Assembly: GCA_028277395.1 (NCBI GenBank)
Contig: JANQGJ010000098.1
Coordinates: forward strand, 1-64,000
Length of the DNA: 64,000 nt
Origin: Bacteroidales bacterium
Lineage (GTDB): Bacteria; Bacteroidota; Bacteroidia; Bacteroidales; F082
Reading direction: 5' to 3'
Under the pieces are notes generated by a model, which ran no database searches, was not told the origin of the DNA, and worked only from the letters and a program-made list of their open reading frames with translations. A program made the position numbers and the translations under genes. Positions 9,727 to 19,010 of the stretch are shown here, piece by piece (positions within the stretch are counted from its first letter, which is position 1; every line of letters starts with the position of its first letter).

Positions 9727-10719
9727 TCAACTGAGCATAAGATTACAACCCCTGACATCACTGTTATCAAACCTTCCCAGAACTTCAAAAGTACCGTTGT
9801 CGTATAATTTACCGAGATCCTGTGTGGCAATAAATGAGCATGAGTAGATATTTGCAAGATCAATAATATTTAGTCCTCCGGATTTGCCATAACCAACCAG
9901 GCTCATGGGATCGTTCAGATTTCTTATTAATACTTTCATCCATGGCGGACAGTTAAATATTCCATCTCCCATCGAATATGCCTGAGAAAACAGCTCGGTC
10001 ATTCCATATTCCGAATAAATTCTGTTAACATCGAAGTTTTTTTTAAGTATTGCATGAACTTCATCTCTGATCATTTCTTTCTTCCGCCCTTTCATTCCAC
10101 CTGTTTCAATAATAATAAGTTCGGGAAATTCCGGTTTATACTTTTCGGCGAAATCAAGTAGCGCATAAGTAACTCCTATTAGAATTGTTTTTTTCTGCTT
10201 TTTTTTTAATTCTAGAAGCACTTCATTAAGTTGGTCATACTCATCCAAATAAAAGCCGCTTTCTACATTCCTGGTGTCATTAATTAACCGGTCGGTCATG
10301 AAAACCAAAGATGATCCTTTCCTTTCCAGATATGATGGCAATAAAGCTAACAATACATAATCTTCAATATTTCCAAAAAACAAATTAAACGCTTTGGTGA
10401 ATGATTCTTTGTAAAGCCGATCATTAATTATATAGTGTTTACTTGTTTTAATTCCTGTCGTTCCACTACTGGAAAAATATTTGTCAGGATTGCAATCACC
10501 TGAAATCACTTTATGATCTTTAAAAAATTCAATGGGTAGAAAAGGTACCAGGGAATAATGGTCAATGCCAGAAATATCAATATTCAAAAAATCAACAAAA
10601 CTCTTATAAATACTATTGTTTTCATATTGAAAATGAAATATTTCCAGTGCAATTCCGTTAAATTCATCAGTACTCTGAATATTTGTTATTCTATTTTCAA
10701 GAGCCGTGACTTTTGGCAT
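9727..10719 (-). CDS. LuxE/PaaK-family acyl-protein synthetase-like protein
   Basis: This 330-residue protein resembles LuxE-type acyl-protein synthetases, which activate an acyl group with ATP. The adenylate-forming motif YFSSSGTTG is near residue 85, and the IYSEYGMTELFSQAYS segment near residue 235 is the second signature. No luxC/luxD-type reductase or transferase lies next to it, so a light-emitting or fatty-aldehyde role is unlikely. Stand-alone LuxE-like proteins occur in Bacteroidota, often near surface-polysaccharide genes, which are not obvious here. The substrate is unknown. Its 5' end is 31 bp from the divergent lipoprotein start at 10751. Confidence 0.85.
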   Translation of the reverse strand: MPKVTALENRITNIQSTDEFNGIALEIFHFQYENNSIYKSFVDFLNIDISGIDHYSLVPFLPIEFFKDHKVISGDCNPDKYFSSSGTTGIKTSKHYIINDRLYKESFTKAFNLFFGNIEDYVLLALLPSYLERKGSSLVFMTDRLINDTRNVESGFYLDEYDQLNEVLLELKKKQKKTILIGVTYALLDFAEKYKPEFPELIIIETGGMKGRKKEMIRDEVHAILKKNFDVNRIYSEYGMTELFSQAYSMGDGIFNCPPWMKVLIRNLNDPMSLVGYGKSGGLNIIDLANIYSCSFIATQDLGKLYDNGTFEVLGRFDNSDVRGCNLMLS

Positions 10720-11366: not shown

Positions 11367-11402
11367 AAAAAAAGGCCGAAAATAAACAGGTTATTTCCGG
11401 CC
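11367..11402 (-). terminator. Rho-independent terminator of the collar-protein cluster
   Basis: Read on the minus strand, a GC-rich stem (ggccggaaataa pairing with ttattttcggcc, one G-T pair) with a 5-nt loop is followed by seven T. It sits just after the small membrane-protein gene and fits as the end of the 11.4-19.0 kb minus-strand unit. Confidence 0.85.
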
Positions 11403-11420: not shown

Positions 11421-11672
11421 TTATTCGTTTATTTCTTTCTTTCTCTTCTGATAGTATTTATATCCTTTATATCCACCATAAGCTCCTCCTAATCCAAGTA
11501 GTATAAATAATCCACTTGCAAGTGGAGCACGACCACCTTGTGCTTCGTTCCCGGATGAACCATGGTTTGGAGGTGGAGGTGGTTCTCCAGGTTGTGCGCT
11601 TAACACTAATGTGGTTGTGGATATTACCATCACCATAATTAATTTCAATATTATTCCTTTATATGACTTCAT
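11421..11672 (-). CDS. Small secreted/membrane protein, Pro-rich with C-terminal anchor
   Basis: This 83-residue protein has a signal peptide (about 1-27, ending LSAQ), a short Pro/Gly-rich spacer with PPPPP, a hydrophobic Gly-rich segment (APLASGLFILLGLGGAYGG) and a basic tail (KRKK). A hydrophobic segment plus basic tail resembles the short C-terminal sorting-like segments seen on many small Bacteroidota proteins. The ATG at 11672 is chosen because the longer reading frame to 11732 overlaps the previous gene by 41 bp. It is the last gene of the collar-protein cluster and directly precedes the terminator. Function is unknown. Confidence 0.7.
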   Translation of the reverse strand: MKSYKGIILKLIMVMVISTTTLVLSAQPGEPPPPPNHGSSGNEAQGGRAPLASGLFILLGLGGAYGGYKGYKYYQKRKKEINE

Positions 11673-11691
11673 AGCTAGTTCTTTTTTTAAA

Positions 11692-14154
11692 TTACCTGTA
11701 ATTGATTTTAGTTGAATATACCTGGTTTTCACCTACAACTTTAACAATATAAATGCCTGGTGATCCATACATTGGAATTTCACAACTGCAGTTATTTGTT
11801 AATTTTTGTGATGATACAAGTTGTCCTGAGATATTATAGATATATAAATCAAATGCACCTTCATTATGCATGTTTTTAACAACTAACTTGTCATTTGAGC
11901 TATAAATATGGAACATATCTTCAATATTATCATCATTTTCACCAATCCCGATTGGTCCTTTGGTGAATTTTACAAGGAATCTGTCTTCATTATGTCCGGT
12001 TTCGGTAATGTTAAAAATATATTCCTGTTCTTTTGTAAGGTCAGTTATGATGTTTTTTTCAAGATCTTTAAGGTATATACCTTCAGAGTTTTCAAAGTTT
12101 TCTATATCTACAACTTTTATTGTATATGAACCTTCAACACTTGCTTTGTAACACAATTTAATATCAATATCTTCTGTGTAAGGTGGTAAACCCTGAATAA
12201 CATAGTAATTTCCATCATCATCAACAAGTTTGGTATAAATATTTCCGCTTCGTCTTATACCATCATATTTATTATCAAATCCATTGGTTGTACCATCAAG
12301 AAATCCAATTAATGTTTCGCTATAAGCTGTAGTTTCTCCTTCAAGACTTATTTTAAATCTTTTTACAGTTTCTTGTGATTTAAAAAATTGTGCTGAATTG
12401 GTAACACGCATATTATCTTTAAACCTTAAAGTAGATGTTGTTTGTGAAGTCCCACTACCATAGTGCACCATAAACCCTTGTCCAACATCAATATAACCAT
12501 TTGGGGTATTTCCTCCGCCACCAGCAACTGCTCCTGTTTTATTCCAGGTTGCATAATCATTTCTGTCATCAGAAAATCCTGCTCCTTCATCCCAAAACTG
12601 TAGGGTGCCATCAATATTAGAATTATCAGCATCATCAATAAAGGCAGTTGCATCAACTCGTGAAGGATATGGATTCCCAACTAAATTCCAACCGAAATAA
12701 TATTCATCAGTTGAAAGGGCGGCATCATACGTGTATGTAACCGTTTCAGTATGAGTACCCGTATTCGTTGTTCCACTAAATGAGATGGTTCTGTTTGATG
12801 GGTTATAGGCATATGCATAGCCCAATCCAACTTCCATATTTCCTCCTTGTGATGAAGCATCAATCCATGATGGGCCTGTACCACCACTTAAATCTTCATC
12901 ATACCAGAATAAGTCAAAATCAGTTTGAGGAGTACCCGATTGAAGAACTGATATTGCCTGGTTACTTACCGGAGAAGATAAATAATGATAAATATCTTCT
13001 GTTATATACCGTTTAACTGTTGCTGTAACCCCGGAACTCTCAATCAATGAACCTGTTCCTGTTGCATCTGATTCAACAGTCAGCGTACCAGCTGCACGGT
13101 TGTTTTTTGAATCAGCAACAGATAGAGTTCCATTTACTGTTAGTGATGTGGTGGAAGAAATTGTAAGAGAGTAATCTGAGCTTACAGTAAGATCATCAAT
13201 TGTATAATCATCATCGATAGTACAGGTGCCGGAAATAACAGCATCTGCAGCAGTTCCACCAGGTATTCCATATGTCCATCTAGCTGACGTTGACCAGTTA
13301 CCTGTGCCTGTAAATGTTGTTGTAGGCCCTACTCCATAAAGTGCAATTGCTGATGGATTAGTTAACCCTGTTTTAATAACTGTTGTTGACCCACCAGAAA
13401 TATCACAACTTTGAATTTCATCAGGTCCGCTATCTGTCCAGTAAAGTTTGCTGTTGGTGAAATCAATTGCTATTGATTTTGGAGATGTACCAGTTGTTGC
13501 TAATTCTGTTTTGCTTGCTCCACTTAAAGTTGCTCTATAAACCTTGTCATCACCAAAATCTGTCCAATACATATAATTATTATTAACATCTAACGCAATT
13601 CCATAAGGATTATTCAAACCAGTAATAACATTTTCAACATTAGTACCGTCAAAATCAGATTTTCTAATATTATTTGCTACTTGTTGTGTCCAATACAATT
13701 TATTGTTTACAAAATCCAGTGCAATCCCATTTATATTATCACTAGCTGCAGTATAAATTACCTCTTGTCCCGTTCCATCAAGATTTGCCCTGCTTATATG
13801 ATCCTTACCTGACTCAGTATCTGACCAGTACATCTTACCTCCGGCTACATCTACTACAAGGTACAAAAAAGTTGATGATCCTGTTGACACAAGATCTACT
13901 GGATTATTACCATCTAAATCTTTTCTGATGATTTTATCATCGTCATTGTCAGTATAATAAATGTAACCATTTAATTCATCAATAAACAAACCACGTGAAG
14001 CGGCAGCAGTTGTTACAGTTGAAGTATTATTTCCATCTAAGTCTGATTTTTGAATAATATCGGTGGTATAATCTGTCCAGTAAATATTGGTCTGAGCCAG
14101 TAAAGCTGATGAAAAAAGCAGCATTACGGCCAAAAATTGTATTAGTTTTTTCAT
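11692..14154 (-). CDS. Secreted YWTD beta-propeller protein with T9SS sorting domain
   Basis: This 820-residue secreted protein has a signal peptide (1-20, ending LLAQ) and six YWTD-type repeats of the LDL-receptor class between about residues 22 and 275 (IYWTD, IYYTD, MYWSD, LYWTQ, MYWTD, LYWTD), which should form one six-bladed propeller. A beta-rich central region like those of other T9SS cargo follows. A C-terminal type A sorting domain (about 745-820, with IYNISGQLV and GIYIVKV) directs export through type IX secretion. It starts 12 bp after the formyltransferase gene and precedes the small membrane protein, so it looks co-transcribed. The propeller suggests ligand binding; the ligand is unknown. 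Confidence 0.88.
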   Translation of the reverse strand: MKKLIQFLAVMLLFSSALLAQTNIYWTDYTTDIIQKSDLDGNNTSTVTTAAASRGLFIDELNGYIYYTDNDDDKIIRKDLDGNNPVDLVSTGSSTFLYLVVDVAGGKMYWSDTESGKDHISRANLDGTGQEVIYTAASDNINGIALDFVNNKLYWTQQVANNIRKSDFDGTNVENVITGLNNPYGIALDVNNNYMYWTDFGDDKVYRATLSGASKTELATTGTSPKSIAIDFTNSKLYWTDSGPDEIQSCDISGGSTTVIKTGLTNPSAIALYGVGPTTTFTGTGNWSTSARWTYGIPGGTAADAVISGTCTIDDDYTIDDLTVSSDYSLTISSTTSLTVNGTLSVADSKNNRAAGTLTVESDATGTGSLIESSGVTATVKRYITEDIYHYLSSPVSNQAISVLQSGTPQTDFDLFWYDEDLSGGTGPSWIDASSQGGNMEVGLGYAYAYNPSNRTISFSGTTNTGTHTETVTYTYDAALSTDEYYFGWNLVGNPYPSRVDATAFIDDADNSNIDGTLQFWDEGAGFSDDRNDYATWNKTGAVAGGGGNTPNGYIDVGQGFMVHYGSGTSQTTSTLRFKDNMRVTNSAQFFKSQETVKRFKISLEGETTAYSETLIGFLDGTTNGFDNKYDGIRRSGNIYTKLVDDDGNYYVIQGLPPYTEDIDIKLCYKASVEGSYTIKVVDIENFENSEGIYLKDLEKNIITDLTKEQEYIFNITETGHNEDRFLVKFTKGPIGIGENDDNIEDMFHIYSSNDKLVVKNMHNEGAFDLYIYNISGQLVSSQKLTNNCSCEIPMYGSPGIYIVKVVGENQVYSTKINYR

Positions 14155-14166
14155 AATGTAAAATTT

Positions 14167-15102
14167 TTAGTTTTTAATATTTATTGTTAGTATTTTTCCG
14201 TTGTTTATTCCAAAATTCGCAAGACGTCCGCCAAATACATATCCCAGTTCAGTATAAATGGCATCAATCCTTATTAACTGTTTACCCTTGCAAACTACAA
14301 ATGCCCCCTGCTTATCATCCGAATGGAAAACCAGGCCGGGCTGATCAGGTAATTCAGCATCAATATTGGCAGGTGTAACCTGAAGGATCTTTATTTCCTG
14401 TCCTTCCAAATATGTTAAGGCTCCTTTATTCCATGGATTACATGCGTTTACTGTAGCAGTAATCTCTTCCATGTCCATGTTTTGCCAATCAATACTTACA
14501 TCTGCAATACCTGGTTTAGGATAATAAGTAGTTGTTTCAAATGACTGTGGTGTTAATTTTACATCCTCATCTTCTATGAGTTGTATTATTTCATCAATTT
14601 TAATACAAGTCAGGGCTGCAGACTTGTGCAGCAGGCTGCCATATGTGTCAATATAATTAATCGGAAAATCTTCCTTAAACAGTATTGGACCGGCATCAAT
14701 TTTTTCAACCATTTTATGTACATACAATCCGGCCATTTTAACTCCTTTACGTATTTGCCAAAAGATTGGGTCGGCACTACGAAACTCAGGTAAGCGTCCA
14801 AAATGAAAATTATAAAACCCAAGCTTTGGTATTTTCAATAGGTTACTGCTGAATTTCAGGGGAAATGTCAATGTCAGGCACACATCAGGTTTAACATTAT
14901 TAAGTATATCAATGAGTTCCTCTTCTTTTTCAAGGTCAGGTGTATACATTTGGTTATCTGCAATATAACCTGAGCTTTTTATAACATTTATTAATTCAGT
15001 ATTTGTAGCAGGTACAACGATCCCGGCAAATACTCTTTTTCGTATTAGCTCAAATACAATTTGGGCTGCTTCTTTATTATTACAAAACACAAGTGCTTTC
15101 AT
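14167..15102 (-). CDS. Formyltransferase of the Fmt/sugar N-formyltransferase family
   Basis: The 311-residue protein has the formyl-transferase N domain with the catalytic Asn-x-His as N-F-H in FYNFHFGRLPEF and the catalytic Asp in KIDAGPIL, followed by an Fmt-like C domain (NPWNKGALTYLEGQEIKIL). These enzymes move a formyl group from 10-formyl-tetrahydrofolate to an amine: Met-tRNA in Fmt, amino sugars in VioF/WbkC-type enzymes. The usual HASLLP stretch reads HFGRLPEFR here, and the context is not translation, so a special substrate is more likely than Met-tRNA. ATG 15102 is chosen over a GTG three codons upstream. It lies 1 bp after the stop of the preceding gene, so the two are translationally linked. 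Confidence 0.85.
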   Translation of the reverse strand: MKALVFCNNKEAAQIVFELIRKRVFAGIVVPATNTELINVIKSSGYIADNQMYTPDLEKEEELIDILNNVKPDVCLTLTFPLKFSSNLLKIPKLGFYNFHFGRLPEFRSADPIFWQIRKGVKMAGLYVHKMVEKIDAGPILFKEDFPINYIDTYGSLLHKSAALTCIKIDEIIQLIEDEDVKLTPQSFETTTYYPKPGIADVSIDWQNMDMEEITATVNACNPWNKGALTYLEGQEIKILQVTPANIDAELPDQPGLVFHSDDKQGAFVVCKGKQLIRIDAIYTELGYVFGGRLANFGINNGKILTINIKN

Positions 15103-15103
15103 A

Positions 15104-16216
15104 CTAAACACATAAAAAAGAATTTAACCATCCACTTGATTCCTCCCTGATAGTATTAAGTATCTCCTTATCCTGACCATCCGGGGTTAATATTTTTATA
15201 AACTTCTTATAATTCTCTCTTTCTCTTCCATTTTTATCAGTAACAAACAGGGAGTGCTCACAATCATAGGTATTAAAATCCGGGTTGAATGCAAGGCTTC
15301 CCCTGGGTGATTTGATTTCTGTATCTTTCAATAATGATTCAAGTTCTGATTTGGGTTTCCAGTTATTCTCAATACATTGTGAAACTATTAATCCTGCCTC
15401 AAATCCTATAATACCAAAAGGTGATAGTATTCTGTTTAGTTTCTGGTTAAAATGATTATATAATCCATTGATAGTTCCGTTAGCCGTATTAAACCATGTA
15501 CTTACCGAGTAAACATTATCTATATATTCTCTTTCCAGAATTGAATTATCAGTAAAGAAGGGCGATGCAATTAAAGGTGTTTCTGTTAATTTCGGATGAT
15601 TCCTGATTGCTTTTATCATCTCGACTGCATCGAAACCACTAAAAGAAGAGAAAATAAAAGAGTTCTCATGTGAATTAACCTTTTCCAGAAAATTCTCAGG
15701 TTTACCTTCAGTTTCCTGACGATAAACGTTAACACTGTTTATATATCCATTGTACTTTTTCGATGCAAGACTCAATGCATGAGAAAAGGGATAACCGGAG
15801 TCATAAAACGACAACATTGTGGAATACTTCAATCCAAACTTATCAATTGCCCATTTAGTCATCAAATATGTGGAATCAAATGATTTAAGAGAGTTATGGA
15901 CTACATAAGAATTCCTATCGGCTTTTAACAAGGGTGTTTCACCGGCATTACACATTATTAATGGTGTTCTGGTTTGTTCTATTAAAGGCAACAATGCCAT
16001 AATACATTTATATCCAAACCAACCGGTAACGATATCTGCATTTTTTTTCAGAATTAATTTTCTGGCAGCCTCCTGAACTTCCCTGGGTGAGCTTGTTCCC
16101 GATTCTTCATCAACAATAGAAACATCATCAGGAATTGATTGTTTAAAACCTTCGATGAAGTCCACTCCAATATATGGATAATACCTGGATTCAGGTATTA
16201 ATATACCAATTTTCAT
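15104..16216 (-). CDS. Leu/Ile/Val-binding-protein-like protein without signal peptide
   Basis: The 370-residue product has the fold pattern of type 1 periplasmic ligand-binding proteins of the branched-chain amino acid/urea class (Peripla_BP_6): start KIGILIPESRYYP, middle CNAGETPLL, VYSVSTWFNTANG, and end SPRGSLAFNPDFNTYDCEHSLFV. Two things are odd. No signal peptide or lipobox precedes the domain, so it should stay in the cytoplasm. No ABC permease or ATPase genes are near. AmiC-like members of this fold act as cytoplasmic amide sensors, which is one alternative. It sits between the collar genes and the formyltransferase, whose start is 1 bp past its stop. Confidence 0.78.
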   Translation of the reverse strand: MKIGILIPESRYYPYIGVDFIEGFKQSIPDDVSIVDEESGTSSPREVQEAARKLILKKNADIVTGWFGYKCIMALLPLIEQTRTPLIMCNAGETPLLKADRNSYVVHNSLKSFDSTYLMTKWAIDKFGLKYSTMLSFYDSGYPFSHALSLASKKYNGYINSVNVYRQETEGKPENFLEKVNSHENSFIFSSFSGFDAVEMIKAIRNHPKLTETPLIASPFFTDNSILEREYIDNVYSVSTWFNTANGTINGLYNHFNQKLNRILSPFGIIGFEAGLIVSQCIENNWKPKSELESLLKDTEIKSPRGSLAFNPDFNTYDCEHSLFVTDKNGRERENYKKFIKILTPDGQDKEILNTIREESSGWLNSFLCV

Positions 16217-16315: not shown

Positions 16316-16942
16316 TTATGGTCTTGAAGGATAAGTTCCTTCTAAACAAATTATCCAGCTCATAACAAGAAATGGTTGCATATTATAATGAGACTGGTCA
16401 CCACCGGTGTTTCCTATCGCAACCTGAATTCCCGAAGTATCAACACTAAGGTTGTTTGTGTTAACTGTAATCGCCTGATCACTTAAGGCATCTGAACCAC
16501 TGGCTGATGTAGCGTACAGGTTTGTTTCATTTTCCTCTGCTGCAAGGAAATTACCTTTTGGTGTATGGATTGTTCCATTCCCGTTGTTCACATGCATAGT
16601 TGCTGTAGCAAAACCACCAACAGGAGCTACACCTCCCTGAGCAGCAGCAGTATGAGAATGAGATGGCATTTCATTTTGATTTAGTATTACCCTTTCAATA
16701 CCACCGGCTTCAGCAAAAGTTCTTACTTCTCCACCCGGATAAGCTCCCATGTGGACCATAACTCTTCCTCTTAAATCAGGTAAAGCAAACGTTACTCTGC
16801 CATCACCACCAAACCTGGTCCCTATCAGTGAAAATAGTGCACCAAACTGCGAAATATTTAACAACTGGCCATCGCAATAAGCCCAAAACCTGGGCGCAAA
16901 CGGACCTGCAAATCCTCTTACTTCTGATATTGTTCCATCCAT
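16316..16942 (-). CDS. Tail-collar-domain (MdpB-like) protein, copy 1
   Basis: This 208-residue protein has an N-terminal phage tail collar domain (SEVRGFAGPFAPRFWAYCDG to the LPDLRGRV block at about residue 70), the central conserved HVNNGNGTIHTPKGNF segment, and the end HYNMQPFLVMSWIIC typical of the microcystin-dependent-protein group. It has no signal peptide. It is the last of four tandem paralogues of 208-209 residues. It is closest in pattern to copies 3 and 4 (VMVHMGAYPGGEVRTFAEAGG). The role is unknown. Collar domains trimerise in phage tail fibres, but no phage genes accompany these. Confidence 0.9.
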   Translation of the reverse strand: MDGTISEVRGFAGPFAPRFWAYCDGQLLNISQFGALFSLIGTRFGGDGRVTFALPDLRGRVMVHMGAYPGGEVRTFAEAGGIERVILNQNEMPSHSHTAAAQGGVAPVGGFATATMHVNNGNGTIHTPKGNFLAAEENETNLYATSASGSDALSDQAITVNTNNLSVDTSGIQVAIGNTGGDQSHYNMQPFLVMSWIICLEGTYPSRP

Positions 16943-17012
16943 AGTTTTTCGTATTAGTTATTTTACTATAAAATATTTAGTTGAATTAGTTAGATTTGTT
17001 CATTATTTGTAC

Positions 17013-17642
17013 TTAGTCCCATCTCTGAGGGTAGTATCCGTTAACACAGATTATCCAGCTCATAACAAGAAACGGCTGCATGTTATAGTGAGTTTCACCA
17101 TTACCGGTATTTCCAACTGTAACCTGAACTCCTGATAAATCTGCATACAGATAATTGGTATTTACCGTAATTGCAAGATCATTTAGTGTATCGGTTCCAC
17201 TTGAGGATGTAGCGTATAGATTTGTTTCATTCTCTTCGGCAGCAAGAAAATTACCTTTTGGTGTGTGGATTGTTCCATTTCCATTATTAACATGCATAGT
17301 TGCTGTTGCTGTCCCACTCACACCTCCGGTAGAACCCTGAGCAATAGCTGTGTGGTTATGTGCAGGCAAATCCGAAACACTTAAAGGTACTCTTTCAATA
17401 CCTCCTATTTCAGAGAATACCCGGTATTCACCACCAGGTCTTTGTCCTTTGTGAACCATTACACGACCCCGAAGATCCGGTAACATGAAATTTGTTATAC
17501 CATCTCCACCGAAATTGGTACCAAGCAATGAATATAACGCAGCATACTCCTGTATTGCAAGTATTTGTCCATTACAATACATCCAGTCTCTTGGAGCAAA
17601 AGGGCCTGCGAACCCTCTTACTTCCGATAAAGTTCCTTCCAT
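17013..17642 (-). CDS. Tail-collar-domain (MdpB-like) protein, copy 2
   Basis: A 209-residue paralogue with the same layout: collar domain at the N-terminus, LPDLRGRVMVHKGQRPGG, the shared HVNNGNGTIHTPKGNF block and the HYNMQPFLVMSWIIC end. It is the most divergent of the four: GQRPGGEYRVFSEIGG replaces GAYPGGEVRTFAEAGG, the loop after HNHTA reads IAQGSTGGVSG, and LSVDTSG becomes LYADLSG. The divergence suggests its own role in a mixed assembly. It lies 54 bp after copy 3 and 70 bp before copy 1. Confidence 0.9.
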   Translation of the reverse strand: MEGTLSEVRGFAGPFAPRDWMYCNGQILAIQEYAALYSLLGTNFGGDGITNFMLPDLRGRVMVHKGQRPGGEYRVFSEIGGIERVPLSVSDLPAHNHTAIAQGSTGGVSGTATATMHVNNGNGTIHTPKGNFLAAEENETNLYATSSSGTDTLNDLAITVNTNYLYADLSGVQVTVGNTGNGETHYNMQPFLVMSWIICVNGYYPQRWD

Positions 17643-17696
17643 AGTTTAGTTTTATTAGTTAGTAAATATTATGCAGGTACTTCTACCAGCAAAATG

Positions 17697-18326
17697 TTAA
17701 TTGGGACGAGATGGGTACAGACCTTCAACACAAATTATCCACGACATAACAAGAAATGGTTGCATATTGTAATGAGACTCATCACCACCTGTATTTCCAA
17801 CTAAAACCTGAATACCTGAAGTATCAACACTTAGGTTATTTGTGTTAACGGTAATTGCCTGATCACTCAAGGCATCTGTACCACTTGAAGAAGTTGCATA
17901 AAGGTTTGTTTCATTCTCTTCGGCCGCAAGAAAATTACCTTTTGGTGTATGGATTGTTCCATTTCCGTTATTCACATGCATAGTTGCAGTTGCAGATCCG
18001 GAAACAGGAGCAACACCTCCTGCTGCTGATGCCAGATGATTATGAATAGGCATTTCATTTTTAGTTAATACTACCCTTTCAATACCACCAGCTTCAGCAA
18101 AGGTTCTGACTTCACCACCGGGATAAGCGCCCATATGTACCATCACTCTTCCTCTCAGGTCTGGTAATGCAAATGTTACTCTGCCATCGCCTCCAAACCT
18201 GTTACCAAGTAATGAGTACAATGCATTAAAATCTGCAATGGGTAATATCTGACCATTGCAATATGCCCAGTTTCTGGGTGCAAAAGGGCCCGCAAACCCT
18301 CTTACTTCCGACATAGTTCCTTCCAT
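17697..18326 (-). CDS. Tail-collar-domain (MdpB-like) protein, copy 3
   Basis: A 209-residue paralogue with the N-terminal collar domain (SEVRGFAGPFAPRNWAYCNG), the LPDLRGRVMVHMGAYPGG block, the shared central block and the HYNMQPFLVMSWIIC end. No signal peptide is present. Copies 3 and 4 share the HNHLASAAGGV loop that differs in the other two, so they are probably the youngest pair. Its ATG is 54 bp after copy 4. Confidence 0.9.
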   Translation of the reverse strand: MEGTMSEVRGFAGPFAPRNWAYCNGQILPIADFNALYSLLGNRFGGDGRVTFALPDLRGRVMVHMGAYPGGEVRTFAEAGGIERVVLTKNEMPIHNHLASAAGGVAPVSGSATATMHVNNGNGTIHTPKGNFLAAEENETNLYATSSSGTDALSDQAITVNTNNLSVDTSGIQVLVGNTGGDESHYNMQPFLVMSWIICVEGLYPSRPN

Positions 18327-18380
18327 AGTTTTATTTATTTAGTTATACAATATTTTTTAAATTCTAATTAGTCAGGTAAA

Positions 18381-19010
18381 TTAATTCGGACGTTGTGGGT
18401 AATCACCATTAATACAAATTATCCAACTCATAACAAGGAATGGTTGCATATTATAATGGGAAAGACTACCACCAGTATCTCCAATAGCAACCTGAATCCC
18501 TGAAGTATCAACACTGAGGTTGTTCGTATTAACGGTTATTGCCTGATCACTCAAGGCATCTGTACCGCTTGAAGAAGTTGCATAAAGGTTTGTTTCATTT
18601 TCTTCGGCAGCAAGGAAATTATCTTTCGGTGTATGAATTGTTCCATTTCCGTTATTCACATGCATAGTTGCTGTTGCTGTTCCTGTAACTGGTGTTACAC
18701 CACCTGCTGCTGATGCAAGATGGTTATGCGTAGGCATTTCGCTTTGTGTTAGTACTACCCTTTCAATACCACCAATTTCAGCAAAAGTTCTAACTTCACC
18801 ACCGGGATAAGCACCCATATGTACCATTACCCTGCCTCTCAGATCAGGTAATCTGAAATTTACTCTGCCATCTCCCCCGAAATTTGTTCCAAGAAGTGAA
18901 AATAAGGCAGTATTTTGGCCAATATCCATGAATTGTCCATCGCAGTAAGCCCAGTTTCTGGGCGCAAAAGGACCTGCAAATCCTCTGACTTCTGATAAAG
19001 TTCCAAGCAT
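18381..19010 (-). CDS. Tail-collar-domain (MdpB-like) protein, copy 4 (first in the unit)
   Basis: A 209-residue paralogue starting MLGTLSEVRGFAGPF, with the full collar domain, the central block (here HTPKDNF instead of HTPKGNF) and the HYNMQPFLVMSWIIC end. It is the promoter-proximal gene of the eight-gene minus-strand run, with a 458-bp gene-free region in front of it. Function unknown, as for the other copies. Confidence 0.9.
   Translation of the reverse strand: MLGTLSEVRGFAGPFAPRNWAYCDGQFMDIGQNTALFSLLGTNFGGDGRVNFRLPDLRGRVMVHMGAYPGGEVRTFAEIGGIERVVLTQSEMPTHNHLASAAGGVTPVTGTATATMHVNNGNGTIHTPKDNFLAAEENETNLYATSSSGTDALSDQAITVNTNNLSVDTSGIQVAIGDTGGSLSHYNMQPFLVMSWIICINGDYPQRPN

What the first reader, a model, noticed from the sequence alone, without database searches (positions are those of the whole stretch)
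14167..16216. Signal-less amino-acid-binding-like protein coupled to a formyltransferase
The ligand-binding-like protein lacks any export signal and any ABC partner, and its stop is 1 bp from the formyltransferase start. A cytoplasmic binding protein coupled to an enzyme that formylates amines suggests sensing or presenting an amine substrate. The HFGRLPEFR stretch in place of the Fmt-typical HASLLP argues against Met-tRNA.
Basis: partly seen in the sequence, partly recalled or inferred. Interest (0 to 1): 0.5.

Follow-up and report, generated by a model that had tools for sequence, protein, structure and literature searches.

The report
Collar-gene cassette with swappable acyltransferase
The two genes are the middle of a conserved bacterial gene set built around short phage-tail-like proteins, in which a formyl-adding enzyme sits where other bacteria carry an acetyl-adding one, hinting that the tail-like proteins (or something they carry) must have an amine group capped.

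Summary
A type-I binding-protein homologue without an export signal (SBP, 15104-16216 -) ends 1 bp before the ATG of a formyltransferase (FT, 14167-15102 -). The assembly has a separate purN and a normal fmt, no Liv-type ABC permease and no other Peripla_BP_6 gene. FT scores below the fmt equivalog cut-off, which the genome's own Fmt passes; it lacks the tRNA-recognition loop and forms a separate clade.

The pair is not a unit by itself. In 395 sampled Bacteroidota genomes, all 24 strong SBP hits (window included) lie beside genes for short phage-tail-collar (MdpB-like) proteins, as do 20 of 21 strong FT hits. In the window: four collar genes - SBP - FT - a T9SS-sorted beta-propeller protein - a small membrane protein - terminator-like hairpin.

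In other collar loci a GNAT acetyltransferase takes FT's place; no locus has both (0 of 97). Collars of GNAT loci begin Met-Ala/Ser/Thr (42 of 47), those of FT loci mostly Met-Glu/Asp (41 of 55).

Best reading: FT is a dedicated amine-capping enzyme of the collar cassette, perhaps acting on the collar N-terminus. The substrate is inferred, not shown. The SBP's role is open; a cytosolic, AmiC-like accessory is my guess.

The parts
18381..19010 (-). short phage-tail-collar (MdpB-like) protein, 209 aa, copy 4, first gene of the inferred operon
   Evidence: PF07484 E 2.7e-24
17697..18326 (-). collar protein, 209 aa, copy 3
   Evidence: PF07484 place on this gene; PHROG tail families
17013..17642 (-). 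collar protein, 209 aa, copy 2
   Evidence: PF07484 place on this gene; PHROG tail families
16316..16942 (-). collar protein, 208 aa, copy 1
   Evidence: PF07484 E 4.6e-24
15104..16216 (-). signal-less type-I substrate-binding-protein homologue (SBP), C-terminus ends WLNSFLCV
   Evidence: PF13458 51.6 bits against cut-off 31.7; family alignment A1; termini
14167..15102 (-). collar-cassette formyltransferase (FT); N98, H100, D136 invariant in 17 of 17 aligned members
   Evidence: PF00551 + PF02911; A2; tree; model pLDDT 88.3
11692..14154 (-). 820-aa protein with signal peptide (by eye), LDL-receptor class B repeats and a T9SS type A sorting domain; starts 12 bp after FT
   Evidence: PF00058, TIGR04183 32.5 bits against cut-off 23
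11421..11732 (-). 103-aa protein with signal peptide, proline run and C-terminal transmembrane/basic tail (all by eye; PID-CTERM-like by eye only; likely start is the internal ATG at about 11672)
   Evidence: ORF; no Pfam family
11374..11402 (-). terminator-like hairpin with T run just after the last gene
   Evidence: 12-pair stem, the longest of 6 terminator-like sites found where shuffles give 4.8 on average, so the number is not above chance

Best explanation
Shown: the two genes belong to a recurrent collar cassette: 1-4 mostly leaderless collar proteins, an optional SBP-like protein, an N-acyltransferase (FT in some Bacteroidota, GNAT in other Bacteroidota loci and in other phyla, none found in about half the loci) and usually a large secreted protein. 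Inferred: FT is a 10-formyltetrahydrofolate-dependent, non-tRNA formyltransferase that acts in the cytoplasm on an amine belonging to the cassette, doing the same job as GNAT with formyl instead of acetyl. Most likely target, inferred: the N-terminal alpha-amine of the leaderless collar proteins (formyl-Met, or formyl-Ser in one lineage, against acetyl-Ser/Ala). Inferred, weakest step: the SBP-like protein stays in the cytoplasm as an AmiC-like ligand-binding accessory that gates or chaperones the collar proteins before they leave the cell.
For: (1) Linkage. The 24 strong SBP hits in 395 Bacteroidota genomes (at least 315 bits; next 40.8, itself beside collars in G212) all lie by collar genes. 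So do 20 of 21 strong FT hits (at least 182 bits; next 135). Collars occur in 103 of 395 genomes. (2) FT is distinct. Fmt equivalog score 116 bits against cut-off 201.5; five other cassette FTs give 93-138, the own Fmt 239. 25 cassette-type FTs and 17 Fmts separate with support 100/100. The Fmt loop PDRKAGRGRKLKISPVK is missing; N, H and D of the active site are invariant in 17 of 17. (3) Swap. 8 of 10 annotated plasmid collar regions that I read list a GNAT (Ruegeria, Pontibrevibacter, Aminobacter, Comamonas, Azospirillum, Rhizobium, Deinococcus, Paenibacillus). Of 97 collar loci 24 have FT, 16 GNAT, none both. (4) N-termini. Residue 2 is small (Met removed by a recalled rule) in 42 of 47 collars of GNAT loci, 12 of 55 of FT loci, 10 of 86 of the rest. 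Bacteroidota only (L028 counted with them): 20 small to 3, 12 to 43, 8 to 46; locus majority small 8 of 8, 6 of 24, 5 of 41. The predicted mature N-terminus lies 7 residues from the conserved Glu in 44 of 46 GNAT, 44 of 55 FT and 38 of 57 other leaderless collars.
Against: FT collars do not differ from collars of loci with no acyltransferase found: both usually keep Met, so the N-terminal split speaks for GNAT acting there more than for FT. 11 of the 12 FT collars with Ser at residue 2 come from one FT clade of six loci. Of the two genomes that hold both kinds of locus, G206 shows the contrast (FT locus 0 of 3 small, GNAT locus 2 of 3), G343 does not (2 of 2 and 3 of 3 small). No modification was observed. 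Fmt (Z 30.4) and ArnA (Z 29.0) fit the FT model almost equally. 47 of 97 collar loci have no SBP, FT or GNAT found. Loci were partly chosen because they hold SBP or FT, and are related, so the Fisher p values overstate independence. In L030 the only collar is a fragment at a contig end, 3.8 kb from FT.
Confidence: 0.35

Rival explanations
1. FT formylates a small amine (amino sugar, amino acid or polyamine) that the SBP binds or senses in the cytoplasm, and the product decorates the collar or the large secreted protein.
For: Among the closest solved relatives are sugar N-formyltransferases (ArnA, WbkC); Peripla_BP_6 proteins bind small ligands (recalled); 15 of 97 collar loci have both genes.
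Against: SBP and FT are often found apart (12 and 9 loci); no sugar-nucleotide pathway family among the nine window proteins scanned; both follow collars more closely than each other.
Confidence: 0.3
2. The SBP is a cytosolic ligand sensor like AmiC that regulates the operon or holds a partner, and FT is a separate function that merely shares the operon.
For: AmiC (1pea, 1qnl) is among the solved relatives of the SBP family profile (E 9.9e-8 and 1.9e-8), and AmiC is cytoplasmic (recalled). Ten collar loci have SBP with no FT or GNAT found.
Against: The two SBPs found in GNAT loci carry Tat-like leaders by eye (L092, L105), so this family seems to work outside the cytoplasm there; no antiterminator gene was looked for.
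Confidence: 0.2
3. FT is a diverged second methionyl-tRNA formyltransferase.
For: Best Foldseek and Z matches are Fmt structures; C-terminal domain present; fmt is its best NCBIfam model.
Against: The assembly has a normal Fmt that passes the cut-off and keeps the tRNA loop; FT lacks that loop, is below the cut-off and is in a separate clade.
Confidence: 0.04
4. The cluster is a prophage remnant.
For: Collar proteins match PHROG tail families.
Against: Of ten window proteins scanned, only the four collars match tail families; FT matches a PurN-like PHROG and the other five none. No SBP match in 50,697 phage records; FT finds 22 records, all partial; the ten listed are at most 33% identical. 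A T9SS-sorted protein follows FT.
Confidence: 0.03

Closest known systems
Methionyl-tRNA formyltransferase Fmt (TIGR00460)
   Same: Both Pfam domains, NxH...D active site, overall fold (Z about 30)
   Different: tRNA loop missing, SLLPxYRG region altered, below the equivalog cut-off, separate clade, tied to collar genes
Sugar N-formyltransferases (ArnA N-domain, WbkC, VioF, WlaRD)
   Same: Same catalytic domain used on a non-tRNA amine; ArnA shares the C-terminal domain region
   Different: No sugar-nucleotide family among the window neighbours scanned; at most 24% identity in the structural alignments listed
Type-I substrate-binding proteins, Peripla_BP_6 (4evq, 4evs)
   Same: Same family by profile, E 2.9e-38 for 4evq
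   Different: No leader, no Liv-type permease in the assembly, W-x-N ... [CG] motif near the very end of the 25 aligned members
AmiC, cytoplasmic amide sensor of Pseudomonas (recalled)
   Same: Leaderless cytoplasmic member of the same superfamily; E 1e-7 to 2e-8
   Different: Linked to collar genes instead of an amidase operon; AmiR-like partner not examined
Short collar/MdpB proteins annotated 'tail fiber protein' with a GNAT beside them
   Same: Same collar trio, usually with a large protein beside it
   Different: FT in place of GNAT; SBP added

Membership tests
Fmt (methionyl-tRNA formyltransferase) | score above the NCBIfam equivalog cut-off | tested here: not met
   116.1 bits against 201.5; control: own Fmt 239.2
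Fmt (methionyl-tRNA formyltransferase) | loop PDRxAGRGxK..SPVK that contacts the tRNA (role recalled) | tested here: not met
   gap in FT, present in own Fmt and in the 16 relatives' frames aligned; those 16 were picked by a script for length and the strings RG and LLP
10-formyl-THF-dependent formyltransferase superfamily (PF00551) | Pfam match and N-x-H ... D catalytic residues (roles recalled) | tested here: met
   60.6 bits against 26.1; N98, H100, D136 invariant in 17 of 17
Sugar N-formyltransferase | sugar-nucleotide substrate | not testable with these tools
   fold alone does not separate ArnA from Fmt
ABC-importer substrate-binding protein | export or lipoprotein signal | tested here: not met
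   N-termini of the window protein and 24 relatives judged by eye, no signal-peptide program
ABC-importer substrate-binding protein | cognate Liv-type permease in the genome | tested here: not met
   0 PF02653 matches in the assembly, about 95% complete
Peripla_BP_6 superfamily | Pfam gathering score | tested here: met
   51.6 bits against 31.7
AmiC-type cytoplasmic regulator | AmiR-like antiterminator partner | not tested
   no search made
Tail-collar (PF07484) protein | Pfam gathering score | tested here: met
   84.6 and 85.3 bits against 24 for copies 1 and 4; copies 2 and 3 over the cut-off
T9SS cargo (downstream 820-aa protein) | type A sorting domain | tested here: met
   TIGR04183 32.5 bits against 23; the Pfam model stays below its cut-off, 22.5 against 27

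The most novel reading that the evidence does not exclude
The cassette FT is a dedicated post-translational protein N-formyltransferase: it puts a formyl group back on the N-terminal amine of mature collar proteins, the formyl counterpart of the N-terminal acetyltransferase (GNAT) that the same cassette carries in other bacteria. Protein N-formylation in bacteria as commonly described is made before translation, and removed by a deformylase (start of the abstract of PMC4745127, seen in the listing).
Probability: 0.2. Interest if true: 0.85.

Novelty: new variant of a known kind. Interest (0 to 1): 0.55.

Why it matters
It ties a widespread set of 'tail fiber' genes, here found outside any recognisable phage, to an amine-capping enzyme that comes in two exchangeable chemistries, which makes the substrate directly testable with one deletion and one mass spectrum. 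If the collar N-terminus is the target, it would be an enzyme that formylates finished proteins. It also shows a conserved binding-protein family without export signal and, in this genome, without a transporter.

Tried and rejected
Housekeeping fmt: rejected. Prophage remnant: rejected as the main reading. SBP-FT as a self-contained sensor-enzyme pair: weakened because the two are often apart. A modified lysine in the collar: among 110 collars, no column with at least 60% occupancy has lysine in more than 26% of any group. FT acting strictly on N-terminal Met: not supported, because collars of loci with no acyltransferase also keep Met and one FT clade has Ser. SBP structure: AlphaFold model from a 2-row alignment had pLDDT 37.6 and was not used. 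The FT fold search does not separate tRNA from sugar enzymes.

Counting notes. Searches scored at most 4 and 5 first-look candidates per genome. In some searches a longest-ORF filter dropped some collars or other genes of GC-rich loci (for example L105, L107, L109, L110, L111, L113); searches used all ORFs and replace those counts. The 97 loci are the window, 3 loci, 23 stretches, and those, except L086 (FT on a 6.5-kb contig with no collar; it is in the tree). Many were picked because they hold SBP or FT. The 10 plasmid regions were my choice among 69 records with a collar match (60 listed), and PLSDB gene tables are incomplete. In one search the group without acyltransferase includes ten loci with an SBP; 17 of its collars and one of a GNAT locus could not be given a start; 12 were called signal-peptide collars by a simple rule of my own. 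GNAT was sought with a profile of eight sequences, so diverged ones may be missed.

Papers: the lists showed, by title and start of abstract, no paper that describes this cassette. Four were capped lists (20 of 65, 20 of 194, 25 of 866, 10 of 49), and only open-licence papers are held. One search used a spelling with a space and found nothing. Of PMC11633204 I saw table passages only (three collars near a putative acetyltransferase, AM1_3684-3690). Of PMC5837995 I saw the abstract. Of PMC4745127 I saw the start of the abstract in a listing. Two DOIs were asked for from memory.

Full report
Observation. The SBP (370 aa) and FT (311 aa from its ATG) are on the - strand, one base apart. FT has both formyltransferase domains; the SBP is Peripla_BP_6. 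The assembly holds three PF00551 matches: a PurN-sized one, a normal Fmt and this FT. The own Fmt reads NLHASLLPQYRGASP and has the basic PDRKAGRGRKLKISPVK loop; FT reads NFHFGRLPEFRSADP and lacks the loop, which the 16 relatives' Fmt frames in the alignment keep (those were picked by script for length and the strings RG and LLP). As a control, the own Fmt passes the fmt equivalog cut-off (239.2 against 201.5 bits); FT has 116.1 and five other cassette FTs 92.8-137.6. No PF02653 permease and no second Peripla_BP_6 protein were found in the assembly.

What surrounds it. Upstream on the same strand are four collar genes with 84% mean column identity. Twelve bases after FT begins an 820-aa protein with LDL-receptor class B repeats and a T9SS type A sorting domain, then a 103-aa protein, then a terminator-like hairpin at 11402-11374, the longest of six found. 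I read 19010-11421 as one operon (inference; no promoter was assigned).

Conservation. A search of 395 Bacteroidota genomes found 24 genomes, the own included, with SBP relatives. With a family profile the same 24 score at least 315 bits, and the next scores 40.8. A collar gene lies beside it in the window and in all 23 foreign loci. The hit at 40.8 bits, in G212 (L092), is also beside collars and a GNAT. The FT profile gives 21 strong hits, of which 20 lie within 1.3 kb of a collar; the exception, L086, is a 6.5-kb contig without one. Collars are in 103 of 395 genomes. Of 36 collar loci with SBP or FT, 27 show a downstream ORF on the same strand with a signal-like start by my rule; L091's is doubtful, and L076 and L083 fail the rule but have long downstream ORFs. 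The 60 relatives searched hold no close FT: the best foreign score is 62.9 bits against 706 for itself. The nearest FT found is 65% identical, on a contig labelled Cloacimonadota (L028). The spread is patchy, which suggests horizontal transfer (inference).

A separate enzyme family. 25 cassette-type FTs (L086 included) and 17 Fmts fall on two sides of the longest inner branch with support 100/100. The catalytic N, H and D are invariant in 17 of 17 aligned members. The AlphaFold model (pLDDT 88.3, 4-row alignment) matches Fmt at Z 30.4 and ArnA at 29.0, so fold alone leaves the substrate open.

The swap. Of ten annotated plasmid collar regions that I chose to read, eight list a GNAT acetyltransferase (three alphaproteobacterial orders, a betaproteobacterium, Deinococcus, Paenibacillus); a Hymenobacter and a second Deinococcus region do not. 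Seven of the eight also list a large protein beside the collars; Azospirillum does not. A Spirosoma plasmid has three collars, FT and a cellulose-binding-domain protein, no SBP. Over 97 collar loci: SBP+FT 15, FT 9, SBP 10, GNAT 14, SBP+GNAT 2, none of these 47; no locus has FT and GNAT. Two genomes, G206 and G343, hold one FT locus and one GNAT locus each, so the enzyme belongs to the locus, not to the species.

N-termini. Collars of GNAT loci begin Met-Ala, Met-Ser or Met-Thr in 42 of 47. Those of FT loci keep Met in 43 of 55 (41 Met-Glu or Met-Asp). Those of the rest keep Met in 47 of 86, with 10 small, 12 signal peptides and 17 undetermined. Within Bacteroidota, L028 counted with them, the contrast remains: GNAT 20 small to 3, FT 12 to 43, neither 8 to 46. 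Inside one genome it holds for G206 (FT locus 0 of 3 small, GNAT locus 2 of 3) and not for G343, whose FT collars start Met-Ser. If Met is removed before small residues (recalled rule), the mature N-terminus lies 7 residues from the conserved Glu in 44 of 46 GNAT, 44 of 55 FT and 38 of 57 other leaderless collars. Of the 12 signal-peptide collars, several expose Gln after the likely cleavage site, which in Bacteroidetes becomes pyroglutamate as a general rule (abstract of PMC5837995). Formyl, acetyl and pyroglutamyl would all block the same amine; the last is not specific to collars. The secreted set also suggests that collars can work outside the cell.

The SBP. The window protein and 24 relatives are leaderless by eye; the two SBPs from GNAT loci (L092, L105) have Tat-like leaders. 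The C-terminus is conserved: W363 and N365 are invariant and C369 nearly so in 25 rows; L092 and L105 deviate. AmiC is among the solved relatives. I guess a cytosolic ligand-binding accessory; nothing shows its ligand.

Verdict. The cassette, the separate FT clade and the FT/GNAT exclusion are shown for the loci examined. The substrate and the SBP's role are inferred. I keep the collar N-terminus as the leading substrate because the swap and the N-terminal split point there, but the split is driven by GNAT loci, and FT collars look like collars with no enzyme found.

Noticed in passing
16316-19010: The four collar paralogues share a nearly identical central stretch (about columns 335-430 of the DNA alignment) while other parts differ more, as if homogenised by gene conversion.
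   Followed up: partly
L111 and L089-L091: Collar clusters beside lasso-peptide-like genes (PqqD-type, B2-type, asparagine synthetase, 2OG oxygenase) in Azospirillum (annotated) and, judged by eye from sequence starts only, in three Bacteroidota FT loci.
   Followed up: no
L069:6050-6745, L075:8375-9049: Aspartyl/asparaginyl beta-hydroxylase (PF05118) genes near SBP-collar loci; genes with similar starts lie in L070 and L030 (by eye).
   Followed up: no
L028: A 4.3-kb contig labelled Candidatus Cloacimonadota carries collar-SBP-FT with FT 65% and SBP 52% identical to the window; misbinning or transfer.
   Followed up: no
9727-10719: LuxE-like acyl-protein synthetase (PF04443), same strand, beyond the terminator-like hairpin.
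   Followed up: no
L105:9711-10961 and L092:7599-8783: SBP homologues in GNAT-type collar loci carry Tat-like leaders by eye, unlike the 25 leaderless ones.
   Followed up: partly
L112: Hymenobacter plasmid: single collar, Ig-like large protein, then a PID-CTERM small protein, similar in order to the window's 820-aa and 103-aa genes.
   Followed up: no
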